Shown here: positions 7,985 through 43,720 of the stretch, one piece after another
Position numbering within the stretch: the stretch's first letter is position 1
Layout: every line of letters starts with the position of its first letter
Source: Prostheceraeus crozeri
Taxonomy: Eukaryota > Platyhelminthes > Polycladida > Euryleptidae
Direction of reading: 5' to 3'
Length of the DNA stretch: 64,000 nt
Assembly (NCBI GenBank): GCA_907163375.1
Contig: CAJQUW010005362.1
Location: forward strand, 186,001 to 250,000
The notes under the pieces: generated by a model
What the model saw: only the letters and a program-made list of their open reading frames with translations
Database searches by the model: none
What the model was told of the DNA's origin: nothing
Program-made: the position numbers and the translations under genes

Positions 7985-8165
7985 TATTGGTGGTCTACGT
8001 GGCACGGTGGCTAAGTGCTTGGCTAGCGATCTTTCGGTCCAGAGGTCGAGCCAAAGTGTCATAGGAAGTCGTCAGGAAGGGCTTCCGGACCAAATGGTCA
8101 CAGCCAGAATAAAGTCTGACTCTGTGTCAACACAGTCAAGCCCCAAGTAAGGTAGAGTAGACGTT
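7985..8165 (+). repeat. tRNA-derived SINE-like element
   Basis: The head is tRNA-like: TGGCTAAGTGCTTGG fits an A box and GAGGTCGAGCC fits a degenerate B box about 35 nt downstream. It is followed by a body containing AGGAAGGGCTTCCGG and CCAAATGG, which resembles the conserved AGGAAGGGCATCCGG module found in many animal SINEs and RTE-type tails. No A-tail or clear target-site duplication is visible, so the copy is probably old. Confidence 0.6.
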
Positions 8166-14755: not shown

Positions 14756-16060
14756 ACTCTTGCAGAAAAGGTTAAATCGTTAAAAAGTCTGTCGATAGAT
14801 AAAGACATTTACATCAGCCGATTAGACAAAAGAAATGGCAGCTTCATCATTGATAGACCAGATTATATAAATAAAATGAATACCATTCTGTATGATGGTT
14901 CGAAATTCAGAAAAATGTGCGATGAGGTAGATCACAGAATATTCATTAAGAAAAGAGGATCCGTTTAATCGTCAATTGCGTAAGTTGAAATCCGAAAATA
15001 AACTTTCTACTGATCTTTATGACAGTCTTCGCAGTGCTGGAAGCTCTCCGGCACGGCTGCATGGGTTGCCTGAAGTGCACAAAAACATGAATGATCCTCC
15101 ATTTAGACCAATTTTATCCATGTGTAATTGTTATAGCACAAACGTTGCTAAACATTTACATAAGTTATTAATTCAATAGGTCCCACAAAAGTTCTCGGTT
15201 AAAGATAGCTTCAAAGCAAAACAAAAATTGATGAAATCAAAAAATTCGGAATAACCATATGAAGTTTTATGGTTCGATGTTAGTAGCTTATTTACTTATA
15301 TCCCACTTAACAGAACTATTGACCATATCGCTCAGTCTATAGATGAAAATGCTATCCCATTCTCTAAAGAAACTTTTAAACAATTATTGAAAATGTCGTG
15401 TAAAAATGTTCCACTTATCTTTAATGATGACATTTATGAACAACACGAAGGTTCAGCGATGGGCTCAAATCTCACTCCAGTTATGGCCGCATTCGCCATG
15501 GACATGGTAGAAAAAGAAATTTCCCAGTATATCCGTTGCGTTGACGACATTCTTGTCTGTTTCGAAAATAATATTGACTGAGACAATTTCTATAAGTTTA
15601 TTAACTCTTTAATTACATCGATAAAGTTCTCTATTGAACATTCTGTCAATAATTCCATTAATTTTCTTGACCTAACTATAAGTGTGAAAAACAAGAAAAT
15701 TACCACTATTTGGAAAATGAAGCAAACAGATACTGGATTATACATGTACAACGCCTGACATTTCTTACTGTCCTTACAAATACAAAATGTCTGATATGAG
15801 AAGCTTGATGTACAGACCTCTCAAACTTTGTCGTGATCCTAATGATGTCAAGCAATGTATTGAGAAATTGAAAAATATTTCCCTTCTAAATGGCTATACT
15901 GAAAGAGAATTTGATAACATTTACCAAAAGGTAGAAGAATGTATTAGAAATCCACCATCTAGCAATAATCAAGGAAAAACTGGACTTTTCTTAATAACAA
16001 ATCACAATTCTTCTTTTTTGCAGCGAATTCCTTACCGGAATCAAGCAAATTAATGTTCGT
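14756..16060 (+). pseudogene. Penelope-like element reverse transcriptase, decayed
   Basis: Fragments in shifting frames match the reverse transcriptase of Penelope-like elements. An N-terminal segment contains RLDKRNGSFIIDRPDYINKM (14,818-14,880). Next come LHGLPEVHK and FRPILS (about 15,060-15,120), WFDVSSLFTYIPL (about 15,270-15,310), an EGSAMGSNLTPV segment, and the catalytic box written YIRCVDDILVCF (about 15,530), where the usual YVDD appears as CVDD. A linker with NFLDLTISV follows. Stop codons or frame changes at 14,968, 15,178, about 15,240, 15,579 and 15,758 show it is dead. These elements insert by target-primed reverse transcription. Confidence 0.8.
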
Positions 16061-17077: not shown

Positions 17078-17623
17078 CATGTTTGACCCTCACAATGAAT
17101 ATTTTTCATTCTAAAATCAAATTGTAATATCATGCATTTTCAGTGACGATATCAATGAGTTTTTAAATCACCATGTACTTCAATATTCCGAGCGAAATAA
17201 AGTCGTATTTCAAATTTACGAATACAATTTTGGTAAAATCATCTTAATAAGCTTTTTAATGTAGGGAACATCTTTTACAGTACAATAGGAATCATCTACA
17301 GTCCGTTTCATAAAAAGTGGATCATCCTAAAATTTGACTAAATAAAACATAAGTATGATACAGAAAGCATTTTTCATGTTATTTCATGTCCCTAATATAT
17401 TTAAATGTCCTTATATAATCTGATAAGCTATGGGGGAAATCCGCCAAAAAGGTGCATTTTCGTGTGTCCAAAATGAAAGTTCGAAAATCTTTGATGTGAT
17501 AGTCTAAAACTATGTAAATCAACATGCTAACAACGAATTTTGATACGACAACCACACCATTTCACGCAATTTTGATATTTCAAGCATTTAGGTTTTTAGA
17601 AGCGTCGGTCTGATGACAATGTG
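17078..17623. other. No gene recognised
   Basis: AT-rich flank between the Penelope-like remnant and the left end of the Polinton. Nothing else is visible. Confidence 0.5.
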
Positions 17624-18233
17624 AGTAGTAAGCAAACGGCGAACACCCGACCGGCGCCCCCCCCCTCTGGAACGACAGAGTGTCGTGGTGTGCCGGCCAG
17701 GTTGGTTCACCTTCACAAAATGTTCGCTGACTCCCCCCCCCTCTGGAACGACAGAGTGTCGTGGTGGACTTGGGCGACCGCCAGGATTAGTCTTGAGGCT
17801 ATAGTGTGTGATGTTTTTCGTGCAATCTGCTGAATGTTGGGTTGTAAAATGGGCTGTTTCGAGTGGAAAGAGTGCTCGGATGAGAAAACGGAGGCCGGAT
17901 TCGGATTCAGCGTGAAATTCTGCATCGGTATGGTGAATTTGAACGCAATCGGAGAGAAAAAATTTTCGCTGACGCCCCCCCCTCTGGACAGCTCGCTTCG
18001 ATTTTGGCTTCCAGTGGACGGATTTTGTCGTGCCATAGCTCGTTTGAAAGCTAAGAGTGAGACAAATTCAGTGAAACAAACGGCTTGTTCATAACTGTCT
18101 TCGTTTAGATGTGAGACGCCATTTAAGATTTTGGGACATTGGCGAAAAACGACAGAGTTAGAATTTAGGACGTTTTGGGCTGTAGCTTCAAAACGAAGCA
18201 TCGGATTGGAAAACGGATTTCAGATTTGAAATC
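17624..18233 (+). repeat. Polinton left terminal inverted repeat
   Basis: Matches the reverse complement of 39,027-39,642 with small indels. It begins AGTAGTAAGCAAACGGCGAACACC and includes three C-runs followed by TCTGGA (near 17,660, 17,730 and 17,975). ORF-like stretches here, up to 162 codons, are open by chance in repeat sequence and recur in the right repeat. Confidence 0.9.
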
Positions 18234-18905
18234 AGCGTGAAATTCTCTATCTGTATGGTGAGTTTCAAGGCAATCGGCGAGAAAAAATTTTCAACATTTT
18301 TCGAAAAAACGACAGAGTTAGAATTTGGGACGTTTTGGTGTGTAGCGCCCAAACGAAGCATCGGATGAGAAAACGGAGGCCAGATTCGGATTCAGCGTGA
18401 AATTCTGCATCGGTATGGTGAATTTGAACGCAATCGGAGAGAAAAATTTTCGCTGACGTCCCCCCCCCCTCTGGACAGCTCGCTTCGATTTTGGCTTCCA
18501 GTGGACGGATTTTGTCGTGCCATAGCTCGTTTGAAAGCTAAGAGTGTCACAAATTCAGTGAAAGAAACGGCTTGTTCATATCTGTCTTCGTTTAGATGTG
18601 AGACGCCATTTAAGATTTTGGGACATTGGCGAAAAACGACAGAGTTAGAATTTGGGACGTTTTGGGCTGTAGCTTCAAAACGAAGCATCGGATTGGAAAA
18701 CGGATTTCAGATTTGGAATCAGCGTGAAATTCTCTATCTGTATGGTGAGTTTCAAGTCAATCGGAGAGAAAAAATTTTCAACATTTTTCGAAAAACGACC
18801 GAGTTAGAATTTGGGACGTTTTGGGCTGTAGCTTCAAAACGAAGCATCGGATTGGAAAACGGATTTCAGATTTGGAATCAGCGTGAAATTCTACATGGAA
18901 ATTGG
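17900..18905 (+). repeat. About 485-bp tandem repeats inside left Polinton end
   Basis: The segment starting TTCGGATTCAGCGTGAAATT at 17,900 recurs at about 18,385, giving a period near 485 bp. Shorter sub-repeats (ACGACAGAGTTAGAATTTGG, CGAAGCATCGGAT, CAGCGTGAAATTCT) recur up to four times to about 18,890. The right terminal repeat carries only one unit, so the left end has expanded. I find no gene signal in it. Confidence 0.85.
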
Positions 18906-22820: not shown

Positions 22821-25800
22821 ATGGTAAGTTGAAAATTTCTTCACTCATATCCCTCAAACGTGTGGCTAATAGCATCTTCCTCAATTTCAGGCATCAACTT
22901 CATCACGAACGCCCTCCCTTCTAGAGGAAAGTTTAGAGTTGTTGAGTCAAGGTAGGTTGTAACAATACACTGAGACTTGAACAGAGATGATAGAATGATT
23001 TCTCTTTCAGGTGATACCAGTCCCATCTCGAGCGAGTCCATGTCAACATTGTCGCGGGAATGCAACGATCGGGAATGTGCTGACTGTGGGCACATCTTCA
23101 CGAGGAAGCGTGATCTCGTCCGACACATCAAGCGAGGTGTTTGTAGACCTAAGTCAGCATCAATCTCCGAAGGTGGGGATGATTCTGTTAACGATGTCTC
23201 CTTTGCTTGCGATTTATGCATTCAGTCTTTTGAGTCACATTTTGAACTATCTTCACATAGACTTCGACATACACACAGTGACGATAGTTATACTAACAGC
23301 GCCTCCTCTATCCGACTCTCTGAAGTGTCGATAAATAATTTAGTGAGGAACTACCAGATGGAATCCTCAGAAACCATTACTGACTTTGAAGAATGGTTTC
23401 ATCAAAATTCATCTTTGATTGGTGCGCTCTTCAACAATTTAGCCAATTTTAGAATGAAGGCGCTCATCTATCTCAAAATAAAATATGCAAAAATCGACCA
23501 CCATACTGGTCAAATAGTAGAGAGGTTGGAGTTTCACATACCCTCCTCTCCTGCAACCGAAGTTGTAGACTGCGAGTCTTGGATAAATTTTCATATCCAA
23601 GGGTTAAAATTAAACATAGATAAATTTAACGAGCGTGATAGTGGACTCGTTTTTGATGGTATTGAGACCGCCATGATTAAAATCACTTTATTAGAGAACT
23701 ACTCTGGACGAGGCTCCTTTAAACTTCCGAAAAGTTTAAAAAATAAAACAGCAGTCATTTCTGTAGATTGCGAATCGCACTGTTTTAAGCATGCCGTCCT
23801 CTCCATTCTCCACTATAATGATGTACAGAATAGCCGATACCCCAAGAGTAAGTATCAACAGTGGGAGAATGAATTAAAGTTTGATGACTGCAATAGTGAA
23901 GATATGAAAATTAAAGATATAGAAAAATTTGAAAAGTTGAACAACATCAAAATAGTTCTCCATGTTTGGGAAAAGGGATTGAAGGGTGTCCGCTACAACT
24001 CGCGTTCGAGTTGTTATGAGCACGTTGTCAACCTTTTATTAGTAAGACAGGATGATAGTGAGGAATGGCACTACTGCGGTATTCCCAAAATCTCTCGCTT
24101 ATACCACCACCTAAGAAATTCTAGCTCATCAGAGATTTATTACTGTGACAGATGCATTCGCAACTTTAGGAGTAAAAATAAATTTGAAACTCATTACGAA
24201 TGGTGTAAGCGAGGTAAACTACAAATGGAGCGCATGCCCAAAGATAAGGAGTTTTCATATAGAGAGAATGGCGATGAACTAAGTCCTCTTCGTGTCATCT
24301 ATGCTGACATCGAATGCTATATCGATGATATCATCCACAAGCCAGCAGCCATATCCTGCTATGAAGTATGGCATGACCATTTACAAAATAGAAAAAATAA
24401 AATGCACGTTTGGCAAGGTGAGGATTGTATTTACCAATTCCTACAATTCCTCGAACAGGCTGTAAAATTTCAACAAAAGTGTGATGGTGAACTCTATCGC
24501 AGATCATTGCATATGACAGCAGATGATCAAGCAAAATGTGATAGTTGCAACGTTTGCCCCAAATGTAGGAAAACATTTGATGATGATAAGATTAAGAAAG
24601 TGCGCGACCATGATCACATCACTGGTAAATTTAGAAACGCACTATGTTCAAAATGCAATTTTTCACTTAGGATGAAACGGCGTACATTACCCGTCATTTT
24701 CCATAATTTCAAGGGCTACGACAGTCATATGATAATAAAAGGAGGTTTAGGTCAAATGAAAGAGTGGAAGCTTGATGTAATAGCACAAACGAGAGAGAAG
24801 TTTATGGTCATGACAGCAAAAGTGCCTGTCGATAAAACTAAAGAAAATAAGACGGTCTATTTTGATATAAAATTTTTAGATTCCTACCAATTTATGACTG
24901 CATCACTGGCCTCTCTCGTACAAAATCTAAAGTCTCTTCCACTAACACAAAATCTTAAGAAACAATATCCAAATCTAACCGATGAAGTCATCACACGGAA
25001 AGGAGTCTTTCCATATGCATATTTTGATGCGATTAATAAACTCGGCGAGACTCCTCTTCCGGCCATAGATAAATTTAAAAATGATTTGAGCGGTGCAGAA
25101 TGTAAGACCGAAGATTATGATCATGCACAAGATGCATGGATAAAATTTGACTGCCATACATTTGGCGAATATATGATTGCCTACCTTACGTTAGATGTAT
25201 TTTTGCTGGCTGATGTATTTCAGGAGTTTCGACGAGTGGCATTAGAAGAAGATAAGTTAGATCCCGTCCACTTTGTCAGTCTGCCAGCCATGTCATTTAA
25301 GTCTGCTTTTAAAATGACTGGTGAGACCATTCATCTCTTACAAGATCCAGAGATGTATAATTTATTTGAGCGAGGAATTCGCGGTGGTCTCACATTTGTA
25401 AATAAACATAGGTTAAAATCAAAATTAGTAGGCGATGATCAGACTCATCTTAAGTATTATGACCAAAATAATTTATATGGTAGTTCACTATCCAAACCAC
25501 TCCCTCACTCTGAGTTTAGCTGGTTAGATGATAGTGAAATTCAGCATCTCTCCAACCCTTCTAACATACTAGCAATTCCAGATGAAGGTGATTGGGGATA
25601 TTATTTTGAGATAGATCTAATTTTTCCAAATAATATTAAACATAAAACCGTAGATTTTCCACTCGCACCCGAATCAGGTGAAGTGACCAAAGATATGTTT
25701 TCCGACTTTATGAAACAATTTCATAAAGATTTAGAATCATGCGATCAACCCGACTATAAGCCTTGCCGCAAACTTTTACTCACCCAGTATGATAAGGAAA

Positions 25801-26810
25801 ACTATCTAGTCCACTTTAGCATCTTAAAATTTTATTTAGAAATGGGTATGATTTTAAAAAGAGTTCACCGCATTATTAAATTTAGACAGAAAGCCTTCCT
25901 CAAACCATATATTGATAGCAACAGCCAGAAACGTGCACTAGCCCAAAATAATTTTGAAAAAGATTTTCATAAGTATAAGAATAATAGTCTATTTGGTAAG
26001 ACGATGGAGGATGTTAGAAAACGTGTAAACTATAAACTAGTCAATGATGTTACAAAATTTAAGAAATTGGTCTCATCACCTCTATTCATCGATAGAGACA
26101 TTATCGATGAGGACCTTGTAGGTGTTAAAATGATAAAATCTGAAGTTGAGTTGTGCAAGCCCATCTATATTGGTCAAGCTGTACTAGATTACTCTAAGCT
26201 TGAAATGTACCAACTCTTTTATAAAATACTAAAACCATGTCCTCTCGTAAAAGAGGTTCGTTTGTTGGGTGGCGATACAGATAGTTTCTTCTTAGGTATT
26301 ACCACTCAAAAAGATTTAAATTTCAATGAAGTAGGAAAATCTTTAGAAAGATATTTTGATACATCAAATTATCCTACTGATCACCCACTCTACTCCATCA
26401 AAAATAAGGCAAAACTTGGCTGCTTTAAGGATGAGACAGCAGGGAAGGAAATAGATGAAATGATTCTCCTCCGTCCAAAAATGTACAGTATGAAATTAAA
26501 GGATAGCGACGATAGTATTAAGCGTGCTAAAGGCATATCAAGATCATTGGTCTCTAACATGAAACATAAAAATTTCAGGAAAGCCTATAGAAATAAAAAT
26601 ATAACGTTTGTCAATATGACAATCTTAAAATCTAAGTCGCATGAGATCAAAACTCATACTTTTAGGAAACGGGCGCTTTCAGCATGGGAGGATAAGAGGT
26701 GCTGGTTAGAGCACAACATATCTATTCCACATGGACATCCTGACACAAACATACCACCACCCAAAAGAATTAAACTCACACTACCACATTCAGGAGACGT
26801 CTTAGCATAA
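22821..26810 (+). CDS. Protein-primed family B DNA polymerase (pPolB), spliced, about 1287 aa
   Basis: Copies the element from a terminal protein primer. Proposed exons are 22,821-22,823 (the ATG alone), 22,891-22,951 and 23,011-26,810; introns of 67 and 59 nt have clean GTAAGT/GTAGGT and TTTCAG borders and keep the frame. C2H2-type fingers lie near residues 43-67, 90-115 and 400. Cys pairs with the RDHDHITGKFRNALCSKCN segment (about residues 534-575) resemble an endonuclease VII/HNH-like insert common in this family. Exonuclease motifs are YADIECY (about 450), HNFKGYDSH (about 585) and YLTLDVFLLAD (about 745). Polymerase motifs are YYDQNNLYG (about 835), KNNSLFGKTMEDVRKR (about 1010) and GGDTDSFF (about 1105). 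All catalytic residues appear present and the gene is open throughout. Confidence 0.95.
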
Positions 26811-26989: not shown

Positions 26990-28510
26990 TCACTTTGTTT
27001 TCCGAAACACTAAAGTTACGAGGGTTTTAGTATCTTTCACATGGATGCACTCTTGTAAACCATTGGCAATTTTGATAGCAATAGAGGGTATAGTTTGTTT
27101 GACGACGGGATGATAGAAAATAGATTCAAACATCTTCTCGACTATTCCATATGAAGCGTCTTTATCATGAATGAAATCACGTAAAATGTATTCTTTTTTC
27201 TCACCAACAGAAATAGGTAGAATCAAATCACTTTGAATGTAAAGGTGCTGTTCATGTTTATCAAGTGTCATTGGTGTTTCTATACCAATCGTATGCGCAG
27301 CAGCAAACACTGTTTGTAGCATTGAAAAACCAAAGAGTTTTTTCAAATTTTTACTCAATTGACATTGAATGTCATCACCCAGTTTCAGAACAACGCGTTG
27401 ATTTTCAATTGAAAACGAAATGTGGTGTGTCTTTACATCATATTTACTTTTCATCACATGCTTCAACTTCTGTTGTATATAAGGATTTACTACATGAATG
27501 AAGCTTTCAACTGTATGATATAGACGCGGCATTATATTGATAGCAACTTTAGATTCTTCATAAGACTGGTAAATTTTCTTGATGCGATCGCCATAGATGT
27601 CCACCCACCATTCATCATTAACTGAATCAGCTTTAGTGTGATATTCATGAGAAGCATACACCACACCGCTTCCAATAATAGGTGTATAATGTCTTACAAA
27701 ATGACGCAAGGTTGGAGAGAAATAAACTGTAAGTTTGTCATTATATTTCTGAATAACCAACTTATTTTTGTTCGCCATAATTTTCTCTCCATACTTCTTA
27801 CCCACAGTCTCATTCCATCGTTTTACTAACTCAATAAGTGATAAAGGTTGAACACCACGCTTTTTCAAAATGATGCGTTCTTCGCATTCTACAACATCTT
27901 CATCAAATATTTTAAATCTATAATGAAATTTGTTGATTCGATTTGAATAAACTTTTTTAACATTTGCAGTAGCAATTGACGTTAGATGTAGTCCATGACC
28001 AAAACCAAGATGTGGATAGAATTCATTATCCAACCTCAGCGTAAGACCTTTAGTAAAAGAATGAAAGCGGAGGAACTGTCTCCCACTCCAATGATAGATA
28101 GTAAACTCATAAGCTTTCTGATTTTTATTCTTCATGATGGAAGTATTACCACTGTTGAATGCCTTAATAATTTTCTCATTCCCAAATGGTTCATAAGAAT
28201 CTGATTTTATCTGAATCCATTCATAGTTCCACTTTCCATCTGATGTTAAATTGTATGGGAACTGAAATGTATTATTCATCGTTATTCCATCATGGGTGCG
28301 AGGAGTCAATATCATTTCTTCCAAATCATTCACATTCTGAATATTGCTATCATAGCAAATACTAGAAACGCCAACCTCCCATTCACCTTCTAAATGCAGT
28401 GGCCGATTTAATTCTACTCGATAGTCTGATGGTTTATTTTTGGGAAATTTATTCATAGAAGCATTACTGGGCAAGTAGATTAGAAACGAGTCCTTATGTT
28501 CACTTTCCAT
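26990..28510 (-). CDS. Polinton structural-type protein A of tandem pair (506-516 aa)
   Basis: The frame opens at 28,540, but I favour the second ATG at 28,510 (MESEHKDSFLIYLPSNAS) because the conserved block starts there. Near the N-terminus are FLIYLPSNAS, a FPKNKPSDYRVELNRPL segment and GEWEVGVSSICY, a pattern I know from large uncharacterised proteins encoded by many Polintons and related adintoviruses. No transmembrane segment or enzymatic motif is apparent. The adjacent gene at 28,550 has the same N-terminal pattern and overall plan, so the pair arose by duplication. A capsid-associated or fibre-type role is likely for the family but unproven. The gene is intact. Confidence 0.7.
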   Translation of the reverse strand: MESEHKDSFLIYLPSNASMNKFPKNKPSDYRVELNRPLHLEGEWEVGVSSICYDSNIQNVNDLEEMILTPRTHDGITMNNTFQFPYNLTSDGKWNYEWIQIKSDSYEPFGNEKIIKAFNSGNTSIMKNKNQKAYEFTIYHWSGRQFLRFHSFTKGLTLRLDNEFYPHLGFGHGLHLTSIATANVKKVYSNRINKFHYRFKIFDEDVVECEERIILKKRGVQPLSLIELVKRWNETVGKKYGEKIMANKNKLVIQKYNDKLTVYFSPTLRHFVRHYTPIIGSGVVYASHEYHTKADSVNDEWWVDIYGDRIKKIYQSYEESKVAINIMPRLYHTVESFIHVVNPYIQQKLKHVMKSKYDVKTHHISFSIENQRVVLKLGDDIQCQLSKNLKKLFGFSMLQTVFAAAHTIGIETPMTLDKHEQHLYIQSDLILPISVGEKKEYILRDFIHDKDASYGIVEKMFESIFYHPVVKQTIPSIAIKIANGLQECIHVKDTKTLVTLVFRKTK

Positions 28511-28549
28511 ATTATTCACATTGGAAAAATATATTAGCATACTTTTGCA

Positions 28550-29983: not shown

Positions 29984-30340
29984 ATGAAGACTTGGATTTT
30001 GGACTCTCTACAATATATCAGAGTTGATCGTGATGGAAACGTACATTTCAAAAATTCTCATGGTCATACATCAAGAGGAATTACATCAACATGGCGACAA
30101 TTTGTCAACCTCAATGATATCATGAGGGATTTGGAATATTTTGAAACATTAAGATTCATCTCCTTGGGTGATCAAGTTTGGCTTCAACATTACAGAAATG
30201 AAATTCAAATCTACCATTCTCATTCCGCAAACTGTTTCTCATTTCGCAAATACAATTGGGAGAAGTATAGAAGATATATACATCGCTCCATCATGACATT
30301 TATTCGTCGTGAGTTCATCGCCCTACTATGCAAATCTTAA
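29984..30340 (+). CDS. Small duplicated protein, possibly PC4-like (118 aa)
   Basis: The frame is open from 29,852, but the upstream part is antisense to the neighbouring gene, and the ATG at 29,984 starts exactly where similarity to the next gene begins. The product contains DSLQYIRVDRDGNVHFK, then LGDQVWLQHYRNEIQIYHS and NWEKYRRYIHRSI. The second half, a beta-rich stretch followed by a W-containing helix, resembles the PC4/p15 transcription-coactivator fold (LGxxVxVxxYxxxxxIxIRxY ... W). That match is by eye and weak. It is directly followed by a paralogue and then by a TBP-like gene, which would fit a transcription role. Confidence 0.6.
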   Translation: MKTWILDSLQYIRVDRDGNVHFKNSHGHTSRGITSTWRQFVNLNDIMRDLEYFETLRFISLGDQVWLQHYRNEIQIYHSHSANCFSFRKYNWEKYRRYIHRSIMTFIRREFIALLCKS

Positions 30341-30362: not shown

Positions 30363-31013
30363 ATGAGTTGGAAATTAGATTCCCTACAACGTATTGAAAC
30401 GGATCATGATCGAAACGTCTATTTCAAAGATTCAACTGGAAATATGAGAAGAGAGTTTGCTTTATCTTATCGTCATTTTCAATCTCTACATCATATCATG
30501 AAGGACTTGAAATACTTCTATATGAAAAGACATTCACGTATTGGAAATCGCATCTGGCTGCGCGTCAACAATCGGCGAATTCAACTCTATCATTCCCAAC
30601 TTCATACTAACTTCACATTTCATCAAGGTAGTTGGGAAAAGTATAAAAGGAAGGTACATCGCTCAATTTACTCATTCTTTCATCATGAAGCGCCATCGCT
30701 ACACCATCGTCAACATTCTCCGTCGCTTCAGACTCTACACCAAAATCGATATCACAACATTACACCAACACCTTCCAAACAGCAAGTATTACCCGGGCCG
30801 TCCTTAAATGTTAGTGGTGAAGATGAACAATTCACGGAATCTTCAACTCTTCCCAAATGGGACTGTACAGATTCTCGGCGCCCTTTCTCATTCATCGGCG
30901 CAGTCAATGCGCTTAGAGCTACAAAGACTACTACGTCGGATATGGAAGAGGGAGAGGTGTGTGATGTCGAATCTGACTGTGGACAATATGGTGATCTCTA
31001 CTCAATTGAGTGA
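30363..31013 (+). CDS. Paralogue of preceding gene, with long overlapping tail (216 aa)
   Basis: Residues 1-105 align with the preceding gene: KLDSLQRIETDHDRNVYFK, IGNRIWLRVNNRRIQLYHS and SWEKYKRKVHRSIYSF. Beyond that the frame stays open for over 100 codons through the TBP-like gene in another frame, giving a Ser/Thr/Pro-rich then acidic tail (TSDMEEGEVCDVESD). The preceding gene stops at the equivalent point, so this tail may be a readthrough artefact; alternatively it is genuine overlapping coding sequence. The first 105 residues are the well-supported part. A PC4-like fold is a possible but unproven reading. Confidence 0.6.
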   Translation: MSWKLDSLQRIETDHDRNVYFKDSTGNMRREFALSYRHFQSLHHIMKDLKYFYMKRHSRIGNRIWLRVNNRRIQLYHSQLHTNFTFHQGSWEKYKRKVHRSIYSFFHHEAPSLHHRQHSPSLQTLHQNRYHNITPTPSKQQVLPGPSLNVSGEDEQFTESSTLPKWDCTDSRRPFSFIGAVNALRATKTTTSDMEEGEVCDVESDCGQYGDLYSIE

Positions 31014-31230
31014 AAGTGTATCATTTTTGAAGATTCGTACCAGCAGTTACAATTTGTGTTATGAACCCGAACTTTTTCCTGCAGCTCTCATCAGTTGTTG
31101 GTTACCTGTGCATGTAGCAATCTTTCATAATAGTAAAGTGATCATTACTGGACTAAAATGTCATGTACAAGCAAATGTGATCCTAGACTACCTCATCGAG
31201 TATGTACGTACCCAGCGGATTGTAAAATAA
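30685..31230 (+). pseudogene. TATA-binding-protein-like gene, one in-frame stop
   Basis: From ATG 30,685 one frame of 182 codons (the size of the TBP core) matches both TBP repeats. Repeat 1 shows YTIVNILRRF, TKIDITTLHQHLPNSKYYPG and FPNGTVQILGA; repeat 2 shows MSNLTVDNMV, then YEPELFP, AIFHNSKVIITGLK and a closing helix. YEPELFP and the F-x-(S/N)GKVxxTGxK pattern are hallmarks of TBP. A TAA at 30,805-30,807 interrupts repeat 1, aligned at a column that is coding in TBP; an ATG follows immediately, so a 140-residue C-terminal product could still be made. TBP bends TATA DNA to start transcription. The gene sits in the element's plus-strand block and overlaps the preceding gene in another frame. 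I know of no TBP in the standard Polinton gene set. Confidence 0.75.
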
Positions 31231-31262
31231 AAAACAATTTTTCCAACATGATGTTTTTATTT
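31228..31262. terminator. Compact convergent polyadenylation region
   Basis: The TBP-like frame ends within AAAATAAAAAAC, giving AATAAA overlapping its stop. Thirty bp on, TTTTTATTTCAAATC provides a minus-strand AATAAA that overlaps the end of the protease gene. The two converging genes are separated by only 26 bp. Confidence 0.5.
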
Positions 31263-31718
31263 CAAATCATGATAGAACTTACAAATCATTTTTTCATTAG
31301 AGGATGGATTACATGAAAAGTTTTGAATAACAGATACAAATCGAGATACATGTAAACGTTTTAAGATGAAGTACAGTACAAAAGCACCACACGTTGATGA
31401 AAGTGGATGTTGTAGTATGCGTTCATTTCGCTGATATTGACGCGTATGTTTTCTCAACCACTGCTGTGTTGGTATATTTGGAGGTTGAGCAAGAGAGTCA
31501 AATAGTTCACCACGTCGGTCTTCTCCAATAAAGATCGCTTTCCAATGCTCACCGCCTAAATTCTGCGAATGAGTGTTTAGCACAATAAAGATGGGATAGT
31601 GATTTACTGCAGGTGGTAAGGTATCGAGTGAATAGACATTATCGAAAGCTTTCAACGTCGCTTCGTCTGCATTACGCTGCACTTTAGTCTTAATATCGTC
31701 AGCAGTCAACCAACTCAT
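31257..31718 (-). CDS. Adenovirus-type cysteine protease (PRO, 153 aa)
   Basis: Family C5 (adenain-like, Ulp1 fold) maturation protease. In order: NLGGEHWKAIFI with the catalytic His58, GELFDSLAQPP with Asp74, Gln103 of the oxyanion hole in LQHPLSSTCG, and the nucleophile Cys110 followed by GAFVLYFIL. The length (153) is short against about 200 for adenovirus proteases but usual for Polintons. The first codon overlaps the last base of the capsid gene stop, so the two are tightly packed. The protein would process capsid precursors. No lesion is seen. Confidence 0.93.
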   Translation of the reverse strand: MSWLTADDIKTKVQRNADEATLKAFDNVYSLDTLPPAVNHYPIFIVLNTHSQNLGGEHWKAIFIGEDRRGELFDSLAQPPNIPTQQWLRKHTRQYQRNERILQHPLSSTCGAFVLYFILKRLHVSRFVSVIQNFSCNPSSNEKMICKFYHDLK

Positions 31719-32995
31719 TAACGATTATACTGAAGAATCACGTCACGATACTTTGTAATTTCAATATTTGAATCGAAGACTGCATAAATTAATACATTGA
31801 TCGTCTCAGCTAGTGTTCTTTTGAACGTTAAATCCAAACGAATATTATGAGGCACGTTCGCTTGACGATAGGGTGCACTAATATCGCTGTTAGCAGTCAA
31901 ATCAAATGCATAAATAGTATATCCACTCTTAAACTCTTTCATAGTAAGTCCGTTGGTGTCATCCGTATTGTAAAAGCCAAAGACATCCATAAAATCAACA
32001 TACCTGCGCATAAATTGATCCGAAGCAAAATCTGGTTTGTAGGGTGGACCAGGATGACTCACGCCATTTACACGTAAAGCAATTTCACTTAACTGATTGT
32101 GTTTAAAATTGAAAGGATTCTTCTTTATATTACCATTAAATGCATCATTTTCAACCATTGCCACCATGAGGAGCTTCGGTGCTTCCGATGGAAAGAGGCC
32201 ATCTTTCATGAAACTCTTTTGATCTTTCGGAATTGTAAAGGTGAGAAGCTTTGTATGCTGAACGGGGTAAATGGCATTTTGGCGGTTAAGACCTTCAGCA
32301 TGTCCTCTAATGACACTTGGATTCGGTACTACTCAACGAATGTAAAGTGCAATATCTTCCACATGAATTCTAAAATTGTCAACTTTAGCAAATGCATTCA
32401 GCGCAAATTCAGGCTTATTCAATGTCAGCTTGAGTCGCATGCTGGTATTACACAGTAAAAACTTTGACTGTCTAAAGAAGTCTAAATTCAGCGGACCATA
32501 TAGCTGACATACTTTACTATCTTTAATCATAGCAGATCGCTTTACAAAGCCACTGTTTGTTTCAACATCAAATTTTCCTGCTTCATCTCTGTACCATCCC
32601 ATGGCTTCCATATGACTTTTTTGTGCTGCTGGATGAAACTGTGATACATGATTGAAATATGATTTATAGGGATAATCGCTTTGACCACCTTCCACCTGCT
32701 GCTCTCCAATCGTTAGAGAAACATCGCGAAGTAATGTAGTCAATGGTAAATTGTTCAGTCCAACTTTATGTGCATCGTCAATAGCAGTTCCATCTGCTTG
32801 CTGAATTCTAAACCTCGAATCAAGCATCGCATAACTCAAATCTATGTAGTCATCACTACCACCAGGAATAACAAATTCAATGGGGCCAGCATTCTCAGCT
32901 GTTCGAGGATGATAATCTACAATACTTGAACTAAGAATATCTGTCTGTATGGCTTGTTGATCAAACAAACAAAAACCGGAAGTTTTACACTCCAT
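31718..32995 (-). pseudogene. Major capsid protein, double jelly-roll, one nonsense codon
   Basis: One frame of 426 codons from ATG 32,995 is interrupted only by a TGA at 32,335-32,333, after residue 220. The first half shows PIEFVIPGGSDDYIDLSY, ADGTAIDD and LTTLLRDVSLTIG, the second NPFNFKHNQLSEIALRVNG, SGYTIYAFDLTAN and LAETINVLIYAVFDSNIEI. These are signature blocks of the Polinton/adintovirus major capsid protein (the family of C. elegans F54H12.2). A transition from CGA (Arg) would explain the TGA. The reading frame is otherwise preserved, so inactivation is recent, or the stop is read through. It lies between the protease and a basic capsid-associated gene, spacing 0-2 bp. Confidence 0.9.
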
Positions 32996-32997
32996 GA

Positions 32998-33453
32998 TTA
33001 GAAGTTATAGCAGCGTCGTCGTTTAGCGCCTGATGAATGATTAGAACCTCTGCGATGATTGCGTGAATGCCTTTTGACTGAAGATCGCACCTTACCAGCT
33101 CCGCGATGTTTCCTCCTTCCTTTATTCATTCGTTTAGGTGATTTCTTTCCTTGAGTAACACCAGCAAAGGTCTGCTTCAATGTTTTTAAACCGCGTTCCT
33201 TCCCACGATTCAACAAACTGCTCATAAAACTTCTACCTCTGGAAAGATCACTAGCAACATCACCAGCAAAGCCAACGGCATTACTTAAAACATTTCGTTT
33301 TAAAGATCTACCGACATTGGATATGAGAGGTGCTACAACAGATTTCAGTGCACCAAGTATGCTACCTCCACGTTGGCGGCGAGCGCCGATGTAAATTTGT
33401 CCTCCACCACTTACATAGGAGGGTCGTGAATAAAATGAGGCAGTTGGATTCAT
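32998..33453 (-). CDS. Basic capsid-associated protein with amphipathic segment (151 aa)
   Basis: Starts MNPTASFYSRPSYVSGGG, then GARRQRGGSILGALKSVVAP, the GG/QRGG block followed by an amphipathic, partly hydrophobic helix seen in the gene directly upstream of the Polinton capsid protein. The C-terminal third is strongly basic (RMNKGRRKHRGAGKVR). The layout resembles adenovirus pVI/pVII-type core proteins that contact membrane or DNA; equivalence is inferred from position and composition only. Two bases separate it from the capsid gene start. Intact. Confidence 0.7.
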   Translation of the reverse strand: MNPTASFYSRPSYVSGGGQIYIGARRQRGGSILGALKSVVAPLISNVGRSLKRNVLSNAVGFAGDVASDLSRGRSFMSSLLNRGKERGLKTLKQTFAGVTQGKKSPKRMNKGRRKHRGAGKVRSSVKRHSRNHRRGSNHSSGAKRRRCYNF

Positions 33454-33494
33454 AGCTCAAACCCTAAACATTGTTAGTTACAACTTTGCATGAA

Positions 33495-34583
33495 TCACTG
33501 TCGATCACTTAGATGAAAGATGTCGGCACGACGCATCCAAGAGTTCATACTTGAAGGATAACCAGTCCATTTAACAAGACACCATTCTTCACCTTGCCGT
33601 TTTTTACATCGAATGATTTTCTCTACCAAATATGTTTCACTTTCAGTGACTACCTCAATCTCATCGCGGTAAAAGCTACCCTCAATTTCTTCATTATCGT
33701 AATCTTTCAACTTGTAGGTGGTTGGAGAGTCTTTTTGATCAATCCTTGATACTGTAAATACCTCCTCTGTCCAATTCGGAAGGTACCCTTTAGCAAAAAC
33801 ACTTTTCACTTTTGAGATACGAACTTTATCACCAATTTTCACATCACTTTTCACATGAGTGCGTTTACGTTGGAATGATTCGCGCACTTTATCTACATTG
33901 TCAGCATTTACATCTACTGGTCTGAGTCCAATAGAACGATGGATAGAGTAATTGTAGGCATGGAGTGTATCTTGTAGAACCTTTGTCCAATTTTGTGTCA
34001 AGTTGGCAGTAAAATGTCGCCACAAGCGATTTTTTAATGTGCGATTAAAACGTTCAACGAGTGCAGCTTTATAAGCACTCTTTACACTAAACAACTCAAT
34101 ATCATGCCTCTCAAATAATCTTCTCACATGCTGATTTTCAAACTCTTTTCCTTGATCACTCTGAATTCTTTTTGGAATGCGGCCTTCTCGAAAAATTGTT
34201 TGGAATGCTTTTGCTACTCCTTTCCCTTCTTTAGTTTTTAAAGGTTGAGCCCACGCATAACGCGAGAAGATATCAATGACGGTTAAAATAAAATTATTGC
34301 CCAAGTTATGTTTTGAAATGGAGGCGACATCGCACAAATCTGCTTGCCACTGTTCATCGATGTCATGAACAATATAATGGGTGGTGCGGTACTTCTTTTT
34401 TGCTTGTTTGTGGAGTGTATAGGTAGCCTGACCCTTTAACCATCGTTTCACTTGTGATTGTGGAAGACCACTCGCTTTTGATAATTTCTTGATAGATGCA
34501 AATCCTGCCGGATGTTTTACATCATAATAGATTGACTTCAAACGTTCAGTCGATGACGACTGACTCTTCTTCCTCCTTCTCAT
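33495..34583 (-). CDS. Retroviral-type integrase with C-terminal chromodomain
   Basis: Inserts the element into host DNA. I place the start at ATG 34,583 (MRRRKKSQSSS), giving 362 residues; the frame is open up to 34,715, but that extension overlaps another small frame. An N-terminal helical domain (IYYDVKHPAGF, a KRWLKGQATYTLHK segment) precedes the catalytic core: WQADLCD (first Asp), IQSDQGKEF (second Asp) and AALVERFNRTLKNR (Glu), spaced D-x33-E. SH3-like sequence follows (IGDKVRISK, GYLPNWTEEVF). The tail is a chromodomain (YLVEKIIRCKKRQGEEWCLVKWTGYP), which in related elements directs integration to marked chromatin. All three catalytic residues are present. Confidence 0.93.
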   Translation of the reverse strand: MRRRKKSQSSSTERLKSIYYDVKHPAGFASIKKLSKASGLPQSQVKRWLKGQATYTLHKQAKKKYRTTHYIVHDIDEQWQADLCDVASISKHNLGNNFILTVIDIFSRYAWAQPLKTKEGKGVAKAFQTIFREGRIPKRIQSDQGKEFENQHVRRLFERHDIELFSVKSAYKAALVERFNRTLKNRLWRHFTANLTQNWTKVLQDTLHAYNYSIHRSIGLRPVDVNADNVDKVRESFQRKRTHVKSDVKIGDKVRISKVKSVFAKGYLPNWTEEVFTVSRIDQKDSPTTYKLKDYDNEEIEGSFYRDEIEVVTESETYLVEKIIRCKKRQGEEWCLVKWTGYPSSMNSWMRRADIFHLSDRQ

Positions 34584-34761
34584 CTTTTTGTTTTCTTGCC
34601 TTTCTACATTTACAACAACTGCAGCATTTAGCTTTAGCGGTTTTGCGATCGTGTTCACATTGCTTAGGGGTTTCATTATGAGAGCTGGCGCAGCAAGTGC
34701 AAGTGACAACGACATTCACCTCTGGCGGCTCATTACATGGCAAGCAACACATCTGCTTCAT
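34546..34761 (-). CDS. Cysteine-rich small frame overlapping the integrase start (71 aa)
   Basis: MKQMCCLPCNEPPEVN, then TCTCC and a late CCSCCKC cluster give 13 cysteines in 71 residues, followed by a charged KQKDEKEEEE tail. The last 13 codons overlap the integrase in another frame. It starts 2 bp after the stop of the preceding frame (34,763). Cys spacing could bind zinc. Base composition constraints alone rarely give such a cluster, but no family is recognised, so coding status is uncertain. Confidence 0.4.
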   Translation of the reverse strand: MKQMCCLPCNEPPEVNVVVTCTCCASSHNETPKQCEHDRKTAKAKCCSCCKCRKARKQKDEKEEEESVVID

Positions 34762-34990: not shown

Positions 34991-35455
34991 TCAAGCAAAT
35001 TTTGGCACATTATGCTTTTTCAATAGTTTAAGAAAGTATGACCAACCAGGTGGAACATAGCCCTGACGGCGCTTTCTACGTGTTACATACTGAATCAAGT
35101 CTTCATAACGTGAAGCATCAATCACTTTATTTTCATCTGTAATGATTTCTCCTCTATCATTTACATTGAGATGGGGTTCAATACTGTTGAAAAGAGATAT
35201 GGCATGTGCGCGAGATGCTAAAGGTGTAGCAGTCGATACAGAGTCAAGCATCTTATTCTTCAAGTTTTTCAATTGCTCAACAGTTTCCGATTGTAATAAT
35301 ACAGCACGATGTGGATCTTTGATGTGAACATTTTGCTGATAATCTATTTCTTTCCTATACATTTGATTTGCAAGAGGTTGCTTTACTTGCTGCATGGCAG
35401 TCAATTGTACATATTCATCCTGAGGAATAACAATCATGCGAGAATAAGAATTCAT
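34991..35455 (-). CDS. Conserved Polinton protein of unknown function (154 aa)
   Basis: Starts MNSYSRMIVIPQDEYVQL and ends GWSYFLKLLKKHNVPKFA, with an internal SRYEDLIQYVTRRKRRQGYVPPGW block. This pattern (an IPxxEY start, a late SRxxDLIQYxxRxRRR, then PxGWxxFL) is familiar from a small gene beside the packaging ATPase in many animal Polintons. Function is unknown; a structural role is plausible because it lies in the capsid block. Its ATG overlaps the ATPase stop by 4 bp (ATGA), indicating tight translation-unit packing, though on separate mRNAs in a eukaryote. Confidence 0.7.
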   Translation of the reverse strand: MNSYSRMIVIPQDEYVQLTAMQQVKQPLANQMYRKEIDYQQNVHIKDPHRAVLLQSETVEQLKNLKNKMLDSVSTATPLASRAHAISLFNSIEPHLNVNDRGEIITDENKVIDASRYEDLIQYVTRRKRRQGYVPPGWSYFLKLLKKHNVPKFA

Positions 35456-36117
35456 AGTTTGTAGATAATCATGGGAGTTTTCAAAATATCACTTCGAAAT
35501 CTAAATTCTTCCGGACACTCTTGCGTAAAGTCAATGAATAAGTAACCGTATGGTTTTTCAGTAGCTGCTTGAAAAATTTCAATTAAGGCTTTTGATCCTC
35601 TGGGTGCAACTTGTCGCGCTAAAATTTCAAATTGACTTTTATCTCGCGGATTCTTGAAACTTGCATAATAGTGTGTATTCAGGTTTCGTGTACGAGCTTC
35701 TTTTCCATCAGGAAACAAATTTTGTGTGATATAGATGATAAAACACCTTTTATGATGTGCTGCACGAGTGAACATATCTGTAACATCTTTGGAATTCTTA
35801 CTTTCTTTTAATAAATCATCCAATACAACAACATCATTAGACTGAAGTTTATCCACTGGAATAATTCCTTCATGTCGAATAAAGTTGCGACTTTGCAATT
35901 CCTGAAACAGCGACGGTTGATAAATACCATAACACCAAATCACTCGATTGATAGGTTCCTTAAGCAACTCCCTTCTTTTATCCAATAAATTCAGCGTGAA
36001 AACAGTTTTACCTGCATGAGATGGACCTGATACAGTCAGAACTTTATCACATTGAAGTCTGAAATCCATTTTATTACTTTGAGATTCAACATTTGCATAA
36101 TTAACGCTTAGAGCCAA
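35452..36117 (-). CDS. Genome-packaging ATPase (A32/FtsK-HerA type, 221 aa)
   Basis: Residues 30-38, SGPSHAGKT, form the Walker A loop and NDVVVLDDLLKES (about 95-105) the Walker B with two Asp. RAAHHKRCFIIYITQNLF (about 128-145) contains the sensor-type Gln. These are the hallmarks of the Polinton ATPase, related to the A32 packaging enzyme of large DNA viruses. The length is normal. It overlaps the basic protein gene upstream by 17 bp and the 154-aa gene downstream by 4 bp. All motifs are intact. Confidence 0.92.
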   Translation of the reverse strand: MALSVNYANVESQSNKMDFRLQCDKVLTVSGPSHAGKTVFTLNLLDKRRELLKEPINRVIWCYGIYQPSLFQELQSRNFIRHEGIIPVDKLQSNDVVVLDDLLKESKNSKDVTDMFTRAAHHKRCFIIYITQNLFPDGKEARTRNLNTHYYASFKNPRDKSQFEILARQVAPRGSKALIEIFQAATEKPYGYLFIDFTQECPEEFRFRSDILKTPMIIYKL

Positions 36118-36457
36118 AGATATTACCCAATAGGTTGCCCACGGCAGGAGCTATCATTGAAAGTATTGCTGAAAGGAAACCGCCCTTTTGTGTTAGAGTT
36201 TTCCTCTTTCTTTGAAGGGTGACTTTAGGATTGGAGATGAAACGCAATTTCGTAGCATATCGCTTAAGTAACTTTCGTTGTTTTGGCGCTAATTTCTTCG
36301 TCCTCAACTTCCTCACATGAGAAATAATTTCACAAATGAATTTATCGTTAGCATGTCGTATAGCATTGTATCGCTGATTTGCTTTCATTCGTCGGAGAGC
36401 TTGAATGGCTGAAGAAAACTTTTGACTTTTACGTTTCGTCATTTTACGTTTCGCCAT
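36101..36457 (-). CDS. Basic Polinton protein with hydrophobic C-terminus (118 aa)
   Basis: Very Lys/Arg-rich for about 90 residues (MAKRKMTKRKSQKFSS, KLAPKQRKLLKRYATKLRF), then TQKGGFLSAILSMIAPAVGNLLGNIFG, an amphipathic or membrane-active tail. A basic body ending in a QKGGFL-type helix next to the ATPase is a recurring Polinton and adintovirus gene. A capsid-core or membrane-lytic role like adenovirus pVI or pX is inferred. Intact. Confidence 0.7.
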   Translation of the reverse strand: MAKRKMTKRKSQKFSSAIQALRRMKANQRYNAIRHANDKFICEIISHVRKLRTKKLAPKQRKLLKRYATKLRFISNPKVTLQRKRKTLTQKGGFLSAILSMIAPAVGNLLGNIFGSKR

Positions 36458-36508
36458 TTTCCGTGTTAGTCTTTGCTAAAACCTATCTTTACCACATTTG
36501 CATAGGTA

Positions 36509-38970: not shown

Positions 38971-39026
38971 GAAATGCTTGATTCTCATTGGATGATGATC
39001 CTCATTGGACAATAACATCAAGGTGA

Positions 39027-39642
39027 TTCCAAATCTGAAATCCGTTTTCCAATCCGATGCTTCGTTTTGAAGCTACAGCCCAAAACGTCCCAAATTCTAA
39101 CTCTGTCGTTTTTCGCCAATGTCCCAAAATCTTAAATGGCGTCTCACATCTAAACGAAGACAGATATGAACAAGCCGTTTGCTTCAGTGAATTTGTCTCA
39201 CTCTTAGCTTTCAAACGAGCTATGGCACGACAAAATCCGTCCACTGGAAGCCAAAATCGAAGCGAGCTCTCCCGAGGGGGGGGGACGTCAGCGAAAATTT
39301 TTTCTCTCCGATTGCGTTCAAATTCACCATACCGATGCAGAATTTCACGCTGAATCCGAATCTGGCCTCCGTTTTCTCATCCGAGCACTCCTTCCACTCG
39401 AAACAGCCCATTTTACAACCCAACATTCAGCAGATTGCACGAAAAACATCACACACTATAGCCTCAAGACAAATCCTGGCGGTCGCCCAAGTCCACCACG
39501 ACACTCTGCCGTTCCAGAGGGGGGGGAGTCAGCGAACATTTTGTGAACGTGAACCAACCTGGCCGGCACACCACGACAGACCACAACCTCTGTCGTTCCA
39601 GAGGGGGGGCGCCGGTCGGGTGTTCGCCGTTTTATTACTACT
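39027..39642 (-). repeat. Polinton right terminal inverted repeat
   Basis: Reverse complement of 17,624-18,233 with a few indels, including a 13-bp difference near 39,580. Three G-runs preceded by TCCAGAG or CTCCCGAG mirror the C-runs of the left end. Contains one copy of the unit that is tandemly repeated at the left end. Confidence 0.92.
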
Positions 39643-40116
39643 CACCTGCACGTCAAAGGTCACATCAGAGACAAAAATGAAATACTAGTTTGTTTGAGAA
39701 CATTACCTCTTACCTCACATCAATCGTGTGTGATGGCTCCTCCAAAGCGCATATCAAAATCGAAAGTGTACTCATATTTTTTGGAGAAGGATGGGGGATT
39801 TTCCTGCCTGGTAGAGACTGGAGAAAAACCGTGTGAAGCACACATCAACAAGATGGGAGGAGCCGAGTCGCATGCATCTAACTTAAAGCGACATTTGATA
39901 AACTTTCATCGAAAATTATTGATAATTGATACAACAATGATCACTAAAAATAGGTTCAGGTAAGCTTATAATGATCAATTTTAGGTTACCAGCTAATTTT
40001 TCAAAAAACTAGACTATAAATGCCTGCCACCCGGAGTCGGAGTCCTATCAAAAGCCGGAGTCCAATCAAACCCCGTAGTCGGAGTCCTATCAAAATGATA
40101 GGACTACGCATCCCTG
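39643..40116 (+). mobile_element. hAT-type element fragment, BED-finger end
   Basis: Abuts the Polinton right end. Its 3' end reads CATCCCTG, the inverse of the CAGGGATG that opens a related copy at 49,792, a typical hAT terminus. An ATG at 39,733 opens a BED-type zinc-finger frame (see separate entry). Near 40,030-40,105 GGAGTCCTATCAAAA-like words repeat three times. The other end of the element is missing: either the Polinton inserted here or a rearrangement removed it. Confidence 0.6.
39733..39963 (+). pseudogene. BED zinc-finger N-terminus of a hAT transposase, truncated
   Basis: MAPPKRISKSKVYSYFLEKD, then FSCLVETGEKPCEAHIN and SHASNLKRHLINFH: two Cys and two His around an SNLxRH turn, as in BED fingers of hAT transposases. 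The frame stops after about 76 residues with no catalytic domain following, so this is a remnant or a domain piece carried by a non-autonomous element. BED fingers bind transposon ends. Confidence 0.6.
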
Positions 40117-42785: not shown

Positions 42786-43720
42786 AGGTTTCTAATAATT
42801 ATTGAATGGCTGCTTTGTCTAAAGAGCAAAGCAGAAAAACATCAAAGATTCAAAACAATTTTCAAAGCAATTTTATGGTTGTGCAACACATTATGAAAGT
42901 GTCTTATGAAGATTTGTGAAATTTGACATCTTTAATTTCGAAGAAAAAATAACAAACCCTCATCCACTATTTTGAGAAAGCATTGACAATATCATAGTGT
43001 GGGCCTACCATATCCACACGGAATTTTTCACGAATTCTTAGATTAAATATTCGCATGATATTTTTTGATACAGAGATCAAGGAAATACCAGAGATATCTG
43101 CATCTATCTAAGCTATGCACTATGTGTAGGATATCAAACGATATTTGATAGACATTCATTGAAGTCTATGAATGTTTGCCGTCTGAATAACTTTGTGATA
43201 AATTCTATTGACTGTCGGTAACAATCGCTGAAATGTCAAAATTGCTTGTGGTGACATCTCTATTCATTACATGATTATTTGTGTGTGAGCCTTCGAGCTG
43301 TTTCGAATTTTTAATCACATTACTTTTTGTCAGTTCGGCTCTTCTAGCGCGGCCATTAGTTGACCCTTTCTTCGGTACAACAGTCGACCCGATTACCTTA
43401 CAATTGCAAGGTCAGTTCATTGTGTTTTGAGTTACTGGCGCAGTGACAGTGATGGCTAATACAATAGTTTGAATCTTAGTAACGATTGGTGATCTAAATT
43501 TGGTTCAATTGGTGCAGCAACAATCGTTATTTGACAATTGTAATTTGACGACAGGAGGTGTGTGTCTTATTTTTCCAATGAATGTCTTATTGAACAATAA
43601 CGCTTGATCTGTCGATTGGATGACGTCGCCACTTTATACTCTTATGGCGTGCAACACCACCATATTTTCTCGTCACGATTACGGACAGACTTGAAACGTC
43701 CTTCGCAGTTCGCAAGAAAC
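42786..43720. other. Upstream region of the AASS gene
   Basis: No coding sequence is recognised. The reading frame of the gene is open upstream to 43,604, but without an ATG. No TATA box is obvious; the promoter probably lies within this stretch. Confidence 0.4.

What the first reader, a model, noticed from the sequence alone, without database searches (positions are those of the whole stretch)
30685..31230. A Polinton carrying a two-repeat TATA-binding-protein-like gene
Seen: one frame of about 180 codons with YEPELFP, IITGLK and a matching repeat 1 (TKIDITTLHQHLPNSKYYPG aligns column for column with the TBP segment ending NPKR), interrupted by one TAA. Known: TBP is the core RNA polymerase II/III initiation factor, and some giant DNA viruses carry a TBP-like gene. 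I do not recall TBP in the standard Polinton set. Inference: the element may bring its own promoter-recognition factor, so its genes could be transcribed selectively, perhaps late in a virus-like cycle.
Basis: partly seen in the sequence, partly recalled or inferred. Interest (0 to 1): 0.92.

Follow-up and report, generated by a model that had tools for sequence, protein, structure and literature searches.

The report
Polinton with its own TATA-binding protein
A virus-like mobile element found in at least 150 copies in its host genome carries a gene for a TATA-binding protein, the factor that normally marks where a cell's own machinery starts reading genes, which suggests that the element may direct the reading of its own genes.

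Summary

It is not a recent capture. The same genome holds two further element-borne TBP classes, 41-53% identical among the three, but only 22-24% identical to the parts of the host TBP that I read. One class keeps the window's gene order. Alleles shared by several copies are mostly silent. In the copies read, all three classes replace the same DNA-kinking Phe with Pro, and the first half of TBP overlaps the upstream small gene's tail in another frame.

Most likely it is an element-specific initiation factor, comparable to the herpesvirus TBP mimic. Which promoters it reads is not shown: a candidate ATGCAAA motif failed in a second class. I found no report of TBP in a Polinton in the papers searched.

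The parts
17621..18727 (+). left terminal inverted repeat, with internal duplications
   Evidence: 95-97% match to the reverse complement of 39018-39645
39018..39645 (-). right terminal inverted repeat
22995..26810 (+). protein-primed-type family B DNA polymerase gene (named by recalled motifs), open
   Evidence: 1278-aa stop-to-stop frame, ATG at 22995; polymerase motifs in order by recall; Pfam finds endonuclease VII inside it, 9.8e-6, and no polymerase model
26990..28540 (-). capsid-region protein 1 (called PX1 here)
   Evidence: 519-aa frame; 32% identical relative in class C copy L196
28550..29977 (-). capsid-region protein 2 (called PX2 here)
   Evidence: 485-aa frame; 46% identical relative (80 residues) beside the class C TBP gene
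29984..30340 (+). twin small gene 1
   Evidence: 42% identical to twin 2
30363..31013 (+). twin small gene 2; its tail from 30684 overlaps the TBP frame in another reading frame
   Evidence: overlap open in one copy of each of three classes
30642..30649 (+). TATAAAAG, 43 bases before the TBP start codon
   Evidence: a TATA-like box at the same distance in the class B and C copies read
30685..30804 (+). TBP repeat 1, first part (piece 1)
30805..30807 (+). in-frame TAA of this copy
30808..31230 (+). rest of TBP repeat 1 and all of repeat 2 (piece 2), with stop
31257..31718 (-). adenain/Ulp1-type cysteine protease, tail to tail with TBP
   Evidence: Pfam Peptidase_C48 1.1e-3, below cut-off; 38-46% identical relatives in the same place in three class C copies
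31718..33004 (-). major capsid protein gene (named by recall), broken by one in-frame stop in this copy
   Evidence: two adjoining frames; no Pfam match
32998..33456 (-). small virion-type protein gene (pVI-like, by recall)
   Evidence: frame; 46% identical relative in class C
33495..34715 (-). retroviral-type integrase with chromodomain
   Evidence: Pfam rve 6.8e-11, Chromo 5.7e-7
35452..36150 (-). packaging-type ATPase
   Evidence: PHROG ATPase 0.0044; 66% identical relative in class C

Best explanation
The gene encodes a two-repeat TBP-family protein that belongs to the standing gene set of a Polinton lineage. Most likely it is an element-specific transcription initiation factor. The TBP gene is read early from an ordinary TATA box by the host's TBP. 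The element's own TBP then sits on the element's promoters through its better conserved second repeat, holds host TFIIB through the conserved Y-E-x-E-[LF]-F-P patch, and so draws host RNA polymerase II to element genes. Shown here: family, fold (of piece 2), presence in three diverged element classes, conserved neighbours in two of them, and a purifying pattern of variation in class A. Inferred: DNA binding, TFIIB binding, promoter choice and timing.
Against: No binding or expression data. No target motif is established: ATGCAAA lies before 5 of 20 starts in this family (some 7-mer reaches 5 or more in 16 of 1000 random sets), but it is missing at the corresponding junctions of a class C copy and is no better conserved among copies than its surroundings. 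The Phe99 position is Pro in all three classes and Thr124 is lost, so DNA kinking at one end may be weak. The TATA-like box lies inside the upstream small gene's coding sequence (a shared Tyr-Lys), which may explain its conservation. The protein has no N-terminal extension such as the Pol II-binding domain of ORF24. The fold was predicted on an alignment of archaeal TBPs, so it leans towards the TBP fold; without an alignment the model was useless (pLDDT 35.4).
Confidence: 0.6

Rival explanations
1. Decoy: the protein binds TFIIB or other host partners without productive promoter binding, and so dampens host transcription during the element's active phase.
For: The TFIIB-facing patch is kept (YEPELFP in A; YETEFFP or YETELFP in B; YETELFP in C), while the DNA face of repeat 1 is degraded (Phe99 position Pro, Thr124 lost).
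Against: The DNA face of repeat 2 keeps Asn, Val, both Phe and Thr in the copy read of each class, more than a pure decoy needs.
Confidence: 0.15
2. DNA architecture factor: a TBP saddle used to bend DNA in replication, packaging or integration rather than in transcription.
For: The KSHV TBP mimic is also needed for efficient viral DNA replication, and a binding site for it lies at the lytic origin (PMC6541308 passages). In the class A and C copies the gene lies between a capsid-region gene and the protease.
Against: The TFIIB patch would have no reason to persist. Neither class B copy read shows a protease within about 340 bases after TBP, so a tight link to virion genes is not constant.
Confidence: 0.12
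3. Passenger: a host TBP copy captured once and carried along without function.
For: The window copy is interrupted, and 17 of 70 sampled copies lack an open frame.
Against: Alleles shared by several copies are mostly silent; three classes 41-53% identical to each other keep the two-repeat frame; in class A the gene is present at least in part beside the protease in 70 of 70 loci.
Confidence: 0.05

Closest known systems
TATA-binding protein (TBP, PF00352), cellular
   Same: two tandem repeats, saddle fold, core contact residues, eukaryote-type residue (L or F) in YExE[LF]FP where all 46 archaeal TBPs examined have Q
   Different: 22-24% identical to the host TBP residues read (17-18% over the repeat-1 exon, 39-45% over 33 residues of a repeat-2 exon); Phe99 position is Pro; no N-terminal domain; carried by a mobile element; first half overlaps another gene
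Herpesvirus TBP mimic (KSHV ORF24, EBV BcRF1, HCMV UL87)
   Same: viral TBP-like protein that steers host Pol II to viral genes; the same is proposed here
   Different: no Pol II-binding N-terminal domain; structural match to a BcRF1 is insignificant (E 0.36); no TATT motif shown; the other five proteins of that complex were not looked for
TBP-like proteins of giant and asfa-like viruses
   Same: structural matches in BFVD: Moumouvirus 3.3e-6, Heterosigma akashiwo virus 1.1e-5, Abalone asfa-like virus B263R homologue 6.5e-5
   Different: those viruses are generally credited with their own RNA polymerase (recalled); no RNA polymerase model was matched by the element frames scanned, so host Pol II would be used
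Mirusvirus TBP
   Same: virus-borne TBP, in 59% of mirusvirus genomes (PMC10132985 passages)
   Different: large herpes-related viruses of plankton with HK97-type capsids (capsid type recalled), not Polintons; no sequence comparison made here
Polinton/Maverick elements
   Same: terminal inverted repeats, rve integrase with chromodomain, polymerase with B-family motifs, ATPase, adenain-like protease
   Different: TBP gene; the four papers on these elements searched by term do not mention one in their main text, and literature searches listed none
TBP of archaeal tailed viruses (HRTV-9, HJTV-2)
   Same: virus-borne TBP; 24-28% identical to the element protein
   Different: archaeal hosts; E only 3e-3 to 2e-2

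Membership tests
TBP family (PF00352) | two tandem repeats in one chain | tested here: met
   three natural open copies of class A: two Pfam stretches each, 1.4e-19 to 1.5e-20; the window copy has both repeats in two pieces
TBP family (PF00352) | saddle fold | tested here: met
TBP family (PF00352) | four DNA-kinking Phe residues of canonical TBP | tested here: not met
   three of four kept; the Phe99 position is Pro in the copies of classes A, B and C read (numbering recalled). TBP relatives such as TRF2 also vary here (recalled), so this bars 'canonical TBP', not the family
TBP family (PF00352) | binds promoter DNA and TFIIB | not testable with these tools
   residue conservation only
Polinton/Maverick | long terminal inverted repeats | tested here: met
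   95-97% over about 0.6 kb, 17621-18727 and 39018-39645
Polinton/Maverick | retroviral-type integrase | tested here: met
   rve 6.8e-11 plus Chromo 5.7e-7
Polinton/Maverick | protein-primed DNA polymerase B | tested here: inconclusive
   1278-aa frame with exonuclease and polymerase motifs in order including GDTDS (motifs recalled); no Pfam, NCBIfam, PHROG or PDB polymerase match
Polinton/Maverick | packaging ATPase, adenain-like protease, double-jelly-roll capsid | tested here: inconclusive
   ATPase PHROG 0.0044; protease C48 1.1e-3, below cut-off; capsid gene named by recall, no library match
Polinton/Maverick | 6-bp target-site duplication | tested here: inconclusive
   no matching 6-mers beside the repeat ends as drawn (read), but the exact ends are uncertain because the right flank is itself repeated sequence
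beta/gammaherpesvirus TBP mimic | N-terminal domain that binds the Pol II CTD | tested here: not met
   the open protein is 181 aa and nearly all TBP core
recent host TBP capture | closer to the host TBP than to other element TBPs | tested here: not met
   to the host residues read: A 34 of 147, B 32 of 145, C 34 of 142; over the same positions A-B 67 of 145, A-C 63 of 142, B-C 78 of 142 (sums)

The most novel reading that the evidence does not exclude
A lineage of Polintons has evolved, separately from herpesviruses and giant viruses, its own two-stage promoter switch. The host TBP reads the TATA box of the element's TBP gene; the element TBP, with one kinking Phe replaced and its first repeat overprinted on another element gene, then reads a non-TATA promoter of the structural genes and commandeers host Pol II.
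Probability: 0.3. Interest if true: 0.92.

Novelty: new variant of a known kind. Interest (0 to 1): 0.74.

Why it matters
Polintons are discussed as ancestors or relatives of many eukaryotic DNA viruses, and how they control their own transcription is unknown as far as I know (recalled). A conserved element-borne TBP makes that question testable: it offers one protein, a small set of promoters, and a genome with at least 150 near-identical copies. It would extend the viral-TBP strategy to small DNA elements that, in the papers searched, were not reported to carry a general transcription factor. It also gives a minimal TBP core, without extra domains, that has drifted far from its host counterpart while showing signs of selection.

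Tried and rejected
Chance or low-complexity similarity: rejected. Host TBP pseudogene: rejected, because the host TBP lies elsewhere (C9306, 123.7 bits) and is far from the element protein. The TAA as a programmed split into two proteins: rejected, since 47 of 70 other copies have the uninterrupted frame.

ATGCAAA as the element's late promoter motif: enriched in this family, but not found at three corresponding junction regions of a class C copy (INT/pVI, ORF36101/ATPase, and the 55 bases before PX1), and not better conserved than background among copies. Left as not supported.

The twin genes as ssDNA-binding or PC4-like proteins: only an idea of mine; no support in Pfam, PHROGs or PDB. The profile search gave adiponectin 6.2e-5 with no stretch passing on its own, taken as chance.

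Relatives in viral contigs: scans with TBP piece 2, a capsid piece, the polymerase and two DNA patterns gave no relative; in the three contigs the listed frames show no TBP gene (for L081 only frames of 100 aa or more in 7000-12388 were listed). Relatives whose words differ are not excluded.

A first count of open frames from MAFFT columns gave 14 of 30; reading frames directly gave 13 of those same 30 and 47 of all 70, so the first 30 are poorer than the later 40 (34 of 40). The selection table has misaligned columns and is superseded; a 30-copy version of the allele test gave p = 0.015 for piece 2 and 0.4 for piece 1. In one search the PX2 row was read in a wrong frame and is not used. Within class A, polymorphism gives no sign of constraint on the twin-2 tail (pN/pS 2.32, 0.88); the case for the overlap rests. 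Of the rows I skipped one place at a contig edge when choosing regions to fetch.

Full report
What was checked. The frame 30685-31230 (+) has one internal stop, TAA at 30805-30807. The two pieces were searched apart. Piece 2 hits Pfam TBP at 3.7e-11 in two stretches; piece 1 alone is weak at 0.0048. PDB search with piece 2 returns 35 distinct sequences at E up to 10, all TBP or TBP fusions, best 5.3e-12; with piece 1 it is inconclusive. On an HMM built here from 15 diverse archaeal TBPs (out of 46 distinct frames kept from 80 fetched loci), piece 1 aligns to positions 5-36 and piece 2 to 42-174, so the pieces are collinear. Of 1,498 six-frame stretches of 25 or more residues in the window, piece 2 is the only one above the inclusion threshold.

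The element. Inverted repeats at 17621-18727 and 39018-39645 bound about 22 kb. Inside are a 1278-aa polymerase-type frame, a chromodomain integrase, an ATPase, a weakly scoring adenain/Ulp1-type protease, a capsid gene with one in-frame stop, two large capsid-region frames and several small genes. Capsid and polymerase names rest on recalled motifs; no library model for a Polinton polymerase or capsid fired. No target-site duplication was found. The TBP gene and two 42%-identical small genes lie on + between genes on -.

The stop is private to this copy. The window is G000:C4454:186001-250000 of a 2.05-Gb assembly. A search of that genome with piece 2 scored 150 of 11,284 first-look candidates; all 150 match at 99-100%, the window's frame being the shortest listed (140) and most others 234 codons stop to stop. 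Since that sample is picked by TBP, a second sample was picked by the protease alone (again 150 scored, of 12,669). Of those 150 places I had 70: 30 loci given and 40 fetched. TBP sequence is beside the protease in 70 of 70, with a large part missing in 3. Read directly, 47 of 70 have the full 181-codon frame from ATG to stop, 6 are open but run past the stop, 17 are not open. The family has at least 150 copies; the true number is not known.

Selection. In the 70 copies, alleles in the TBP frame present in three or more copies are 12 silent, 6 replacement, 0 stop, against an expected 77% replacement (p = 8e-5); alleles in one or two copies are 41/141/4, as expected without selection. This fits selection while the family spread and decay after insertion. 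Copies share ancestry, so the p-value is indicative; with 30 copies it was 0.015 for piece 2 and not significant for piece 1.

Other element classes and the host. A Pfam TBP search of the genome (150 scored of 10,983 candidates, all over the cut-off) gave the host TBP on C9306 (123.7 bits; a second exon about 15 kb away), a TRF2-like locus on C3829, and matches with frames of other lengths. I read five of these: class B (L184, L185) and class C (L186-L188). One longer stretch of each class was read in full: A-B 41%, A-C 42%, B-C 53% identical. To the host TBP they are 17-18% over the exon with repeat 1 and 39-45% over 33 residues of a repeat-2 exon, together 22-24%; over the same positions the classes are 44-55% identical to each other. 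The class C copy has PX2 (46% over 80 residues), one small gene (30%), TBP (43-44%) and protease (42% over 81 residues) in the window's order and strands, and further on integrase (63%), pVI-like (46%) and ATPase (66%) relatives. The class B copy has a small gene and TBP but no protease in the 340 or so bases after it. The gene therefore belongs to the lineage and is old.

What the residues say. With yeast numbering recalled, the copies of A, B and C all keep Asn69, Phe116, Asn159, Val161, Phe190, Phe207 and Thr215; the Phe99 position is Pro in all and Thr124 is lost; one residue is missing before Phe116. The patch that faces TFIIB reads YEPELFP in A, YETEFFP or YETELFP in B, YETELFP in C. Its L or F is eukaryote-type: 46 of 46 archaeal TBPs have Q, and the eukaryotic ones printed have L.

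Overlapping genes. The frame of the upstream small gene stays open through the first 103-113 codons of TBP in the copy read of each class. Given the TBP protein and codon usage, the chance of that is 0.0002 (A), 0.0004 (B) and 0.0027 (C); the same frame has 6-8 stops in the rest of TBP, and the third frame has 9-14 stops inside the overlap. The tails share a [PS]FSF motif and an SIE near or at the end. The three genes are related, so the three chances are not independent. Within class A, polymorphism does not show constraint on this tail.

Promoters. A TATA-like box lies 43 bases before the TBP ATG in A, B and C, taking the B and C start codons by alignment. It lies inside the small gene at a shared Tyr-Lys, so protein coding may account for it. 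ATGCAAA precedes 5 of 20 gene starts of the window element but is absent from the corresponding class C junctions. No target motif is claimed.

Mechanism and literature. The nearest working model is the herpesvirus TBP mimic: KSHV ORF24 recruits host Pol II through its own N-terminal domain (PMC7498053, abstract and outline), and TATTWAA is enriched in promoters that depend on it (PMC6541308, passages); PMC12529657, seen only as a listing entry, reports a noncanonical DNA-binding mode. The element protein lacks such an N-terminal domain, so TFIIB would be the link to Pol II; this is inference. Paper searches for TBP with Polinton, Maverick or adintovirus listed no paper that I could see to report one; for only 40 of 341 hits were listed, and not every listed paper was opened. 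Term look-ups in PMC11071308, PMC8097293, PMC10120064 and PMC3671162 found no TBP or TATA in the main text; in PMC7786948 the two topics are unrelated (passages). PMC10132985 (passages) gives TBP in 59% of mirusvirus genomes, and PMC10675990 (passages) mentions sporadic TBP genes in mirusvirus-like elements of a green alga. The adintovirus paper PMC8502044 was not held, so adintovirus gene sets were not checked. Unindexed repeat libraries were not searchable, so novelty is limited to this library.

Verdict. Identity as a TBP-family gene of a Polinton-type element: about 0.97. Function as an element-specific initiation factor: about 0.6.

Noticed in passing
window 30684-31013: The tail of the second twin gene overlaps the TBP gene in another reading frame; the overlap is open in one copy of each of three element classes, with shared motifs.
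   Followed up: yes
window 28544, 30328, 33485, 36092, 36497: ATGCAAA, a partial or full match to the POU octamer (recalled), sits shortly before five gene starts of this element; not seen at corresponding class C junctions.
   Followed up: partly
window 43601-46531: Uninterrupted 976-aa frame for alpha-aminoadipic semialdehyde synthase, a bifunctional host enzyme, with no introns in a 2-Gb genome.
   Followed up: no
L195 (G000:C12605:343700-345300): In the class C copy the gene matching window ORF 36101-36475 occurs twice in a row before the ATPase.
   Followed up: no
window 15255-15581 and 62758-63213: Reverse-transcriptase-like fragments, perhaps Penelope-type by recall.
   Followed up: no
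L193 (G000:C3829:151450-152000): A TRF2-like (by recall) TBP paralogue of the host with one stop inside the match.
   Followed up: partly
window 22974-26807: The polymerase frame contains an endonuclease VII match (Pfam 9.8e-6; PHROG 6.5e-7 for the 24243-26807 piece) and N-terminal C2H2-like zinc fingers below cut-off.
   Followed up: no
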